Positions 25,824 to 28,735 of a stretch of 46,546 nt of DNA are shown here, in pieces. The stretch covers positions 1 to 46,546 of the forward strand of contig JAPLXV010000020.1 in NCBI GenBank assembly GCA_026395895.1. The letters are read 5' to 3'. The position numbers and the translations under genes are program-made. Origin of the DNA: Candidatus Nomurabacteria bacterium (GTDB lineage Bacteria > Patescibacteriota > Minisyncoccia > Phycocordibacterales > UBA9973). How positions within the stretch are numbered: position 1 is the first letter of the stretch; the number at the start of each line of letters is the position of its first letter. The notes beneath the pieces were generated by a model that ran no database searches, was not told where the DNA came from, and saw only the letters and a program-made list of their open reading frames with translations.

Positions 25824-26687
25824 ATGAGCAAATCTTTCTTTTTTGTTGATGATAGTGGTTCAAAAGAGTGGGAAACACCTTATGCTTTTGAATTTACAAA
25901 AAAGCCACCGATTAGAAATGAAGATAATTTAAAATTTTGGCGAGGGAATTACTTTGTTCTTGCTGGTATATATGTTTCTACTGATTCAATCGCAATAATA
26001 AATCCAGAAATAAATATTCTAAAAAAGAATTTTTTTGGAACAAAATATGTAGAAATTAAGTCAGAATGGTTAAGAAATCCACACAAAAGAAGAAAAAAAT
26101 ATCTTGAACCATATAGTAAAACTGAAGAAGAACTTAAAAAATTTGTCGAAGAGAAATGGTATGGTTTATTTGGAAAATATAAAAATGAAATTCAAATACA
26201 GGCATTTGTTTTAGATAAACGTTTTTATAGCAAAAAGAGAGAAAAAGAAACTCCATTACAAGAACTTATACAAGTTTTATTTGATCGAGTTGAACTTCAT
26301 CCAAACTGTGATTGCGAAATTGTTTTTGATCAAATGGATGCAAATATTAAATCACAAAAACATAATCAAGGAGTTATTTTAAAAATTTCTAAAAAAGAAT
26401 TAGACCTAAGATCTTTCTATAAAAAATATTCTCATACTGACATTCGTTTTGAAGATTCTATTAATTCAAATTTTTTACAAGTTGCTGATACTGTCGCTTA
26501 TAATGTATTTCGTCAGTTTGTTCAACACGGAGATAGTTGGGAAGGTTCAGATGGAGATACTTTAAAAGAGTATTCCTTTTTTTCAAAAATTATTCCTAAT
26601 TTTTATCATAAAAATAAGAGAATAGCAGGATATGGAATTATTAAAATTCCAGACACAAAGAAAATAAGATGGAGTCGTAAAGAATAA
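25824..26687 (+). CDS. DUF3800-family protein
   Basis: FFFVDDSGSKEWETPY N-terminus; conserved acidic DSI...LQVADTVAYNVFRQF C-terminus. Confidence 0.75.
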   Translation: MSKSFFFVDDSGSKEWETPYAFEFTKKPPIRNEDNLKFWRGNYFVLAGIYVSTDSIAIINPEINILKKNFFGTKYVEIKSEWLRNPHKRRKKYLEPYSKTEEELKKFVEEKWYGLFGKYKNEIQIQAFVLDKRFYSKKREKETPLQELIQVLFDRVELHPNCDCEIVFDQMDANIKSQKHNQGVILKISKKELDLRSFYKKYSHTDIRFEDSINSNFLQVADTVAYNVFRQFVQHGDSWEGSDGDTLKEYSFFSKIIPNFYHKNKRIAGYGIIKIPDTKKIRWSRKE

Positions 26688-26689
26688 AA

Positions 26690-26787
26690 AACAAAAAATC
26701 CCCACAATTTGTGAGGTTCTTTTGTGGTCAGTTCCTTTCGGTCCCATCATTCGCTGAGAGGATGGCTAGATGTTTAATCAACCGACC
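26690..26787 (-). ncRNA. Candidate small RNA antisense-oriented between DUF3800 and eno
   Basis: Minus strand: TTGACT-18 bp-TATAAT promoter (26794-26823), predicted TSS at GGTCGGTT, closing GGTCGGTT/AACTGACC helix, CCATC/GATGG hairpin, terminator CCTCACAAATTGTGGGGATTTTTT. Confidence 0.65.
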
Positions 26788-26866
26788 GAGTACATTATAT
26801 CAAAATGTCCGACAAAAAGTCAATAGTTATCCACAGGTAAAAAATGTGTTAAAATATAAGGATAGT

Positions 26867-28084
26867 ATGGATAATAAAATCACAAAAATAATAGCTGAAG
26901 AGGTAAAAGATTCACGAGGAAATCCGACTATTAAAGTGACAGTTTTTTCAAATGACAAATTTGATAGTTTTTCTGTACCGTCTGGAGCTTCTACGGGTAC
27001 AAATGAAGCGCATGAATTGAGAGATAAGGACGGTAAAGGTGTAAAAAAAGCAATTGAAAATGTAGATAATATAATTGCTCCGGCACTGGTTGGCCAAAAT
27101 GTTTTGAATCAAGAAGAAATTGATAGAATTATAATTAAACTAGACGGAACCAAAAATAAAGATAATTTAGGTGGCAATGCCATGATTGGCGTAAGTATCG
27201 CTTGTGCTAAAGTAGGAGCAAAAGTTTCTAGCCTAGAAACTTTTGAATATTTAAGAGAACTGAAAGAAATAAAACCATCTAGAAAAGTCCCATATCTTTA
27301 TATGAATTTAATAAATGGGGGTAAGCACGCGAAAGATGATTTGGCTTTTCAGGAATACCATATTGTGCCAGATATTGATTATGTAAATGAAGCGGTTGAA
27401 ATTGGAATTAAAATACAAAATACTTTGAAAGAAATGATAATGAAAGAATTGGGAGAAGAATCTGTTGTTTTGGGAGACGAGGGAGGATTTGCGCCACAAA
27501 TAAGTGATATAAGAAAACCACTTGAATATTTAAGTAGAGCAATCAAAGAAAATGGGTTAAAGGGGAAAGTACGATTGGCTCTGGATGTAGCTGCGTCGTC
27601 TTTTTATGATAACGAAGAATATAAGGTTGATGGGAAAAATATTTCAAAAGAAGAATTAATGAAAATTTATAGTGATTTGATAGTTGAATTTGATTTGCTT
27701 TCTATTGAAGATCCGTTTGATGAAGAAGATTTTGCTAGTTTTAGAAAATTGAAAGAGAATAATAAAGGTCTTTTGGTGGTTGGGGATGATTTGACTGTTA
27801 CAAATTCGTTGCTTCTTGAAAAAGCCATAGCAGAAAAAAGTATCAATGCCATGATTATAAAACCAAATCAAATTGGTACCCTTACCGAAACTCTAGAAAC
27901 TATGCGACTAGCCAGAGAAAATGATATTGAGCTTATTGTAAGTCATAGAAGCGGGGAGACAGATGATGATTTTATTGCCGATTTAGCCTACGCTTTCGGC
28001 TGTTTCGGCCTAAAATCCGGCGCTCCGTCCAAACCAGAAAGAAAAGTAAAATATGATAGGTTAATTAAAATAAGTGAGAAATAA
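26867..28084 (+). CDS. eno: Enolase; start set to ATG 26867
   Basis: ITKIIAEEVKDSRGNPTIKV; SGASTGTNEAHELRD; LGDEGGFAP; SIEDPFDEEDF; IIKPNQIGTLTET; SHRSGETDDDFIADLA. Confidence 0.95.
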   Translation: MDNKITKIIAEEVKDSRGNPTIKVTVFSNDKFDSFSVPSGASTGTNEAHELRDKDGKGVKKAIENVDNIIAPALVGQNVLNQEEIDRIIIKLDGTKNKDNLGGNAMIGVSIACAKVGAKVSSLETFEYLRELKEIKPSRKVPYLYMNLINGGKHAKDDLAFQEYHIVPDIDYVNEAVEIGIKIQNTLKEMIMKELGEESVVLGDEGGFAPQISDIRKPLEYLSRAIKENGLKGKVRLALDVAASSFYDNEEYKVDGKNISKEELMKIYSDLIVEFDLLSIEDPFDEEDFASFRKLKENNKGLLVVGDDLTVTNSLLLEKAIAEKSINAMIIKPNQIGTLTETLETMRLARENDIELIVSHRSGETDDDFIADLAYAFGCFGLKSGAPSKPERKVKYDRLIKISEK

Positions 28085-28089
28085 ATTTT

Positions 28090-28560
28090 ATGGAAATAAA
28101 CCAAGAATCTTTTATAAAAATAAAAGAGAGAGCTGAAAAGTTATATTTAAATAAAAAAGAAATTTATTGTCCGTATTTTCAAAAGAAAGTTATTTTAAAC
28201 TCAGATGGCTTTCATCATTTGCAGTTTTCAAGTCGTAGAGAAAGGAATAAAAATGAACAATTTTTTAAATTTCGTCTTTTGCAATCAGCGTTAGAAATAA
28301 TAGGAAAATCTGGGACTATTCAAGAATACAGGAAAATATTAATGCCGATTGGTAAAAAATCAAAACAAGATGGTTTTGTTAAAATGAAAGAAGTTGAATT
28401 TTGGGGACTGGTTGCTATAGTTGGTGAAAGATCAAAGAAGATAAAAGCCATATTAAGAAGAGTTGGTGATGGGAATATTACTTTTTGGAGTGTTATGCCT
28501 TATTCAAAAATAAAGAATGGTGAACAGAAAATATTTACAGAGGGGATTGAAGAAGATTAA
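28090..28560 (+). CDS. Putative Barnase/EndoU/RelE-like (PBECR-type) nuclease domain protein
   Basis: IYCPYFQKKVILNSDGFHHL...KFRLLQSALEII...KIKAILRRVGDGNITFWSVMPY pattern; family-level call from memory only. Confidence 0.45.
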   Translation: MEINQESFIKIKERAEKLYLNKKEIYCPYFQKKVILNSDGFHHLQFSSRRERNKNEQFFKFRLLQSALEIIGKSGTIQEYRKILMPIGKKSKQDGFVKMKEVEFWGLVAIVGERSKKIKAILRRVGDGNITFWSVMPYSKIKNGEQKIFTEGIEED

Positions 28561-28561
28561 A

Positions 28562-28651
28562 ATAAAAAACGCCTCAAATGAGGTGTTCTTTATTATGCCT
28601 GGCTTCAGCTTAGGAATACCTTAGCTGAACGGGGCTTACGCCCACAGGCAC
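28562..28651 (-). ncRNA. Candidate small RNA with three-way junction and intrinsic terminator
   Basis: Minus strand: TTGATT-17 bp-TATATT promoter (28658-28686); closing helix TGCCTG/CAGGCA, hairpins GGGC-GTAA-GCCC and TTCAGCTAAGG/CCTAAGCTGAA; then CACCTCATTTGAGGCGTTTTTT. Confidence 0.7.
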
Positions 28652-28735
28652 ACAGAGAATATAGCACAAAAATATGATAAAATCAATAAGTAAAGACAAC
28701 TGTGGATAACTTATAATCATGCTTAGAATAAATTT

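What the first reader, a model, noticed from the sequence alone, without database searches (positions are those of the whole stretch)
26690..26823. Candidate roughly 95-nt small RNA transcribed opposite to eno
Sequence, minus strand: TTGACT-N18-TATAAT. The predicted start coincides with GGUCGGUUGAUUAAACAUCUAGCCAUCCUCUCAGCGAAUGAUGGGACCGAAAGGAACUGACC, whose ends pair (GGUCGGUU/AACUGACC). A terminator CCUCACAAAUUGUGGGGAUUUUUU follows. Promoter, fold and terminator agree in phase. I could not match it to the SRP, 6S, tmRNA or RNase P signatures I know.
Basis: partly seen in the sequence, partly recalled or inferred. Interest (0 to 1): 0.75.

Follow-up and report, generated by a model that had tools for sequence, protein, structure and literature searches.

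The report
Cloverleaf RNA paired with DUF3800 gene
A small bacterium of the Patescibacteria carries a real, previously uncatalogued ~96-nt structured RNA that always sits tail-to-tail with a gene for a predicted RNase-H-like nuclease (DUF3800), which suggests a two-part RNA-protein module rather than an RNA that acts on the neighbouring enolase gene.

Summary
The minus strand at 26823-26692 has a near-consensus promoter (11/12), a ~96-nt RNA and an intrinsic terminator. The RNA matches no Rfam 15 family, including the DUF3800-associated motifs.

The important neighbour is not eno but the DUF3800 gene (25824-26687), on which the RNA converges. Every usable relative of this DUF3800 protein (two other genera of the order, Roizmanbacteria, Woesebacteria, Shapirobacteria) has a homologous RNA at the same place and orientation, with its 3' end within -24 to +4 nt of the DUF3800 stop.

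The family folds as a cloverleaf with a conserved 12-nt loop (CUCUnAGCGuAU). 97% of cells pair, and 12 of 20-21 pairs show compensatory double changes (0/500 shuffles). In one Woesebacteria genome separate deletions hit both partners. Two loci lie beside defence genes.

A second module of the same layout lies 1.8 kb away: an LPD3-like gene (28090-28560) with a convergent three-way-junction RNA, conserved at 28/28 loci inspected.

DUF3800 was already known to associate with ncRNAs, so this is a new RNA class of a known kind. Best mechanism (inferred): the RNA binds and controls the DUF3800 nuclease, as antitoxin or cofactor. No transcript or binding data were available.

The parts
26692..26787 (-). 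RNA1: ~96-nt structured RNA gene (cloverleaf body 26787-26726, linker, terminator)
   Evidence: CM R1 match 94.7 bits over all 99 positions; sequence
26794..26823 (-). Promoter of RNA1: TTGACT-N18-TATAAT with extended -10 TG; TGTGGATAAC just upstream
26726..26787 (-). Cloverleaf: P1 26787-26780/26733-26726; P2 26779-26777/26771-26769; UAG 26768-26766; P3 26765-26761/26748-26744 with conserved 12-nt loop 26760-26749; P4 26741-26740/26735-26734
   Evidence: RNAalifold and pair counts with compensatory changes in all four helices
26692..26716 (-). Intrinsic terminator of RNA1 (stem 26716-26700 plus T run), probably acts in both directions
25824..26687 (+). DUF3800 protein, 287 aa, predicted RNase-H-like nuclease; converges on RNA1
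   Evidence: Pfam PF12686 E 7.5e-13; invariant acidic motifs; weak RNase HII fold matches
26867..28084 (+). eno, divergent neighbour, probably not functionally tied to RNA1
28562..28650 (-). RNA2: second convergent RNA, three-way junction plus terminator
28658..28686 (-). Promoter of RNA2: TTGATT-N17-TATATT
28090..28560 (+). 156-aa LPD3-like protein, partner of RNA2
   Evidence: 9 of 25 family members match Pfam LPD3, best E 3.9e-9; homologs carry RNA2

Best explanation
The element is the RNA half of a two-gene module. Shown from sequence: a DUF3800 gene and, tail-to-tail with it, an RNA gene with its own promoter-like sequence and terminator, inherited together and folding into a conserved cloverleaf. 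Inferred: the RNA is made constitutively and separately from the DUF3800 mRNA, binds the RNase-H-like DUF3800 protein through its fold and conserved P3 loop, and controls its nuclease activity. This would be an RNA antitoxin or essential cofactor in a mobile defence or toxin-antitoxin-like module. The absence of any variable unpaired segment makes a guide role unlikely.
For: RNA1 homologs lie at every DUF3800 relative found with at least 40% identity and usable sequence, on the opposite strand abutting the stop codon. Compensatory changes: 12 of 21 pairs in 6 sequences, 97.5% of cells paired against 25-48% when slid, 0/500 shuffles; 8 sequences give 97.3% and 12 of 20 pairs. A phylum survey of 384 genomes with the covariance model found one further strong match, again beside a DUF3800 gene, although the model had not seen it (39.9 bits). 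In Woesebacteria GWB1_33_22 a ~34-nt deletion removes the DDSG motif and shifts the DUF3800 frame, and a separate 63-nt deletion removes the RNA promoter and 5' strand of P1; syntenic GWF1_31_35 has both intact. DUF3800 has invariant D9/D10, E77, D131, D169, D222, and the best fold matches are RNase HII. PMC10910872 predicts an RNase H fold for DUF3800 and notes prior ncRNA association. Neighbours include Thoeris ThsB and a type IIG R-M gene. RNA1 has no repeats and ends in a terminator.
Against: No expression, binding or toxicity data. Only eight sequences, one a remnant and one cut by a contig end. The co-loss is a single case. The fold match to RNase HII is weak (E 0.03, mean pLDDT 67.6). 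Defence neighbours at two loci may be coincidence. Antitoxin and cofactor roles cannot be separated from sequence.
Confidence: 0.6

Rival explanations
1. A cis-antisense regulator: RNA1 pairs with the 3' end of the DUF3800 mRNA, as in convergent type I toxin-antitoxin pairs, and lowers its expression.
For: Tail-to-tail layout; at L094, L099 and L100 the RNA 3' end overlaps the end of the DUF3800 gene by 20-24 nt.
Against: Antisense pairing does not need a covarying fold, yet the fold is under selection. In the window the RNA stops 4 nt short of the coding sequence, and the shared terminator should end the mRNA before most of the complementary region.
Confidence: 0.12
2. RNA1 guides or scaffolds DUF3800 for movement of the cassette or for target cleavage, like an omega RNA or a bridge RNA of IS110 elements.
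For: RNase-H-like partner, patchy distribution and different neighbours at each locus, insertion between glycerate kinase and eno.
Against: No variable guide-like unpaired segment; RNA ends at a terminator; no multiple copies (one RNA1 in the own genome). Insertion boundaries and terminal repeats were not mapped.
Confidence: 0.13
3. A trans-acting sRNA that base-pairs with other mRNAs through the exposed CUCUnAGCG loop, with DUF3800 only a neighbour.
For: Own promoter and terminator; conserved single-stranded loop.
Against: Association with DUF3800 across distant lineages and co-decay with it would be unexplained.
Confidence: 0.08
4. An ordinary divergent promoter with a protective terminator: the transcript is a by-product.
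For: Several other gene-tail sites in the genus show a similar promoter and only a simple hairpin terminator.
Against: Four helices with compensatory changes and a conserved loop are not expected of a by-product.
Confidence: 0.04

Closest known systems
DUF3800-associated RNA motifs (Rfam DUF3800-I RF02969, DUF3800-IX RF02968 and others)
   Same: Structured RNA next to a DUF3800 gene; association already reported (PMC10910872; Rfam families listed in PMC11701678).
   Different: No match of RNA1 or its relatives to any Rfam model even at permissive thresholds. Whether the known motifs are also tail-to-tail could not be checked: the original paper is not held and no instance was found.
Type III toxin-antitoxin systems (ToxIN, CptIN, TenpIN)
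   Same: Works-like candidate: a structured RNA may restrain a nuclease partner.
   Different: In type III systems the RNA is a run of direct repeats upstream on the same strand, and the toxin is an endoribonuclease of another fold (own knowledge). Here a single non-repeated RNA is convergent with an RNase-H-like protein.
Convergent type I toxin-antitoxin pairs of Gram-positive bacteria
   Same: Tail-to-tail layout with overlapping 3' ends (own knowledge).
   Different: Toxin there is a short hydrophobic peptide; here a 287-aa nuclease-like protein and a covarying RNA fold.
Omega RNAs and IS110 bridge RNAs
   Same: Non-coding RNA encoded beside an RNase-H/RuvC-like protein.
   Different: No guide-like variable segment evident; transposon ends not mapped.

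Membership tests
Rfam DUF3800-I to -XI motifs | Covariance-model score at or above the gathering cut-off | tested here: not met
   No hit for window or 14 loci at gathering; none up to E 10 for window, L099, L100
DUF3800-associated RNAs (kind, not a family) | Structured RNA repeatedly adjacent to DUF3800 genes | tested here: met
DUF3800 (PF12686) | Pfam score above cut-off 21 bits | tested here: met
   49.9 bits, E 7.5e-13
Type III toxin-antitoxin | Antitoxin RNA of tandem repeats upstream of the toxin on the same strand | tested here: not met
   RNA1 is single-unit, downstream and convergent
Type III toxin-antitoxin | RNA neutralises a toxic nuclease by binding | not testable with these tools
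   needs expression and binding assays
Type I toxin-antitoxin | Small hydrophobic peptide toxin | tested here: not met
   partner is a 287-aa DUF3800 protein
Omega RNA / bridge RNA | Variable guide or target-binding segment | tested here: inconclusive
   none evident in eight aligned RNAs; too few sequences for a firm test
tRNA, SRP RNA, 6S, tmRNA, RNase P RNA | Rfam model match | tested here: not met
   only four ordinary tRNAs in the window, none at this site

The most novel reading that the evidence does not exclude
Patescibacteria use a general two-part design, a mobile nuclease-like gene facing its own structured RNA tail-to-tail, in which unrelated proteins (DUF3800, LPD3-like and perhaps NYN and ADP-ribosyltransferase types) are each controlled by a cognate cloverleaf or three-way-junction RNA: a new type of RNA-controlled toxin or defence module.
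Probability: 0.33. Interest if true: 0.85.

Novelty: new member of a known kind. Interest (0 to 1): 0.63.

Why it matters
DUF3800 proteins have been linked to unexplained RNAs, but what the RNAs do is open as far as the held literature shows. A compact cloverleaf with a fixed tail-to-tail layout, a clear interaction candidate (the P3 loop) and a case of joint decay makes the partnership directly testable in E. coli. The second, far more common RNA family beside the LPD3-like gene suggests that such modules are a recurrent theme in tiny-genome bacteria.

Tried and rejected
Nucleotide search for the RNA alone in 100 relatives gave only promoter fragments and chance matches. Attempts to scan viral contigs failed because the server did not answer. 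Plasmid and phage records have no relative of the DUF3800 protein, and plasmids none of the RNA. Searching for a known DUF3800-I instance to compare layout found none. Of the weaker model matches in the phylum survey (under 27 bits) the three inspected, L105, L108 and L111, looked like chance terminators. A coding reading of the RNA was rejected: the only AUG lies in the P3 region, is disrupted by covarying changes, and is followed at once by a stop in L095 (from the sequences). The tempting promoter motif TGTGGATAACTATTGAC is shared by several unrelated sites in the genus, so it is a promoter feature and not a mark of this family.

Full report
Check of the observation. The reported sequence is where it was said to be. 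The promoter TTGACT-N18-TATAAT (26823-26794, minus) is the best of 28 promoter-like sites in 24-29 kb, but such sites are not enriched over shuffles, nor are terminator-like sites. The RNA with terminator is more stable than shuffles (z -3.1); the body alone is not (z -1.2). The motifs therefore justified a look but did not prove a gene. The RNA diverges from eno, whose real start is 26867, and converges on the DUF3800 gene 25824-26687.

Known families. Rfam 15 finds only tRNAs in the window at gathering scores. Permissive scans of the window site and of two homologs give nothing better than E about 0.6 and no DUF3800 motif.

Context in relatives. In most same-genus relatives, glycerate kinase is followed directly by eno, so DUF3800 plus RNA is an insertion. 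In two relatives (G047, G023) a NYN-domain gene occupies the slot, also followed by a minus-strand promoter and a hairpin terminator.

The RNA follows DUF3800. Homologs of the DUF3800 protein are rare: 4 of 297 genomes in the order, and in the class sample only one other weak fragment; 5 loci in a scan of GTDB genomes. All with usable sequence carry a homologous RNA on the opposite strand, abutting the stop codon: G083 (L094), G116 (L095; L102 is nearly the same), Roizmanbacteria (L098), Woesebacteria (L099, remnant in L101) and Shapirobacteria (L100). Two fragments (L096, L097) have no RNA. A covariance model from six RNAs (R1), run over 384 genomes of the phylum, gave one further strong match, L104, again beside a DUF3800 gene. 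Other matches were under 27 bits.

Structure. RNAalifold on six sequences predicts a four-helix cloverleaf. Counting a named structure: 97.5% of cells paired, 12 of 21 pairs with a change on both sides, none of 500 shuffles as good, and slid controls at 25-48% paired. Eight sequences aligned to the model give 97.3% and 12 of 20. That alignment is fitted to the structure, so one search is the cleaner test. Conserved parts are P1, the UAG linker and the P3 loop CUCUnAGCGuAU. In alignment A2 the L100 row was typed with one T too few in the terminator T run; no pair is affected, and one search uses the stored sequences.

Joint decay. L101 against syntenic L099 (87% identical) shows a ~34-nt deletion that removes the DDSG motif and shifts the DUF3800 frame, and a 63-nt deletion that removes the RNA promoter and the 5' strand of P1. 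One case, but what a functional pair predicts.

Protein. Invariant acidic residues lie in DDSGS, E77, D131-K132, FDQM and NxLQxAD. The AlphaFold model is of middling quality (pLDDT 67.6, pTM 0.73). Its best matches in the PDB are RNase HII, E 0.03-0.07, in line with the published RNase H reading of DUF3800 (PMC10910872). L100's DUF3800 starts directly after a type IIG R-M gene, and L099's lies near Thoeris ThsB. This suggests, without proving, a defence or toxin-like role.

Second module. 1.8 kb away, the 156-aa ORF 28090-28560 is also met tail-to-tail by an RNA (28650-28562, minus). Homologs of this protein occur in 32 of 297 genomes. All 28 loci inspected by eye have the RNA at the gene's tail; an automated fold scan recovered the three-way junction in 24 of 26. 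Fifteen sequences show double changes at 12 of 19 pairs. Rfam has no match. The protein family matches LPD3 in 9 of 25 members and has no solved relative by sequence or fold. A second copy with its own RNA lies at G000:C32. R1 recognises some of these RNAs weakly (17-26 bits), which may reflect only the shared P1-plus-terminator layout.

Mechanism. Shown from sequence: a co-inherited protein-RNA pair with a selected RNA fold. Inferred: binding, and control of nuclease activity. An antisense role does not explain the covariation; a guide role lacks a guide segment; a pure by-product is contradicted. Antitoxin and cofactor roles remain undecided.

Novelty. DUF3800-associated RNAs are a known kind, so this is a new member of that kind, outside every Rfam model. 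The more novel reading is that unrelated nuclease-like genes in these bacteria share a tail-to-tail design with cognate structured RNAs.

Noticed in passing
window 28090-28560 (+) and 28650-28562 (-): LPD3-like gene with a convergent, covarying three-way-junction RNA conserved at 28 of 28 loci inspected across the order; matches no Rfam family.
   Followed up: yes
G000:C32:23446-23531 (L121): Second copy in the same genome of the LPD3-like gene with its own convergent RNA.
   Followed up: partly
G000:C33 (L061), also L043 and L047: Another DUF3800 subfamily (matches PADLOC PDC-M04A) with a convergent promoter and a short near-perfect hairpin (GGGCGUCGACCGUUAGGACGAUGGCCC) at its tail.
   Followed up: partly
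L054, L058, L045, L104: NYN-domain nuclease genes that also face a convergent promoter and a short hairpin RNA.
   Followed up: partly
L057: ART-PolyVal (ADP-ribosyltransferase) gene with a convergent promoter plus hairpin RNA at its tail.
   Followed up: no
L042, L044, L046, L048-L052, L055, L056, L059: Genus-wide promoter TTGYATAACTATTGACTTTT followed by a hairpin/terminator-like leader and GTTTGGCGGAGCACAACCGC before the start codon of a conserved gene; may be an attenuator or riboswitch-like leader (L062 has the promoter and GGCGGAGC stretch but lacks the hairpin).
   Followed up: no
L016, about 150-40 bases upstream of eno: In G003 eno is also preceded by a divergent promoter and short hairpin RNA, with an unidentified gene in the slot.
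   Followed up: no
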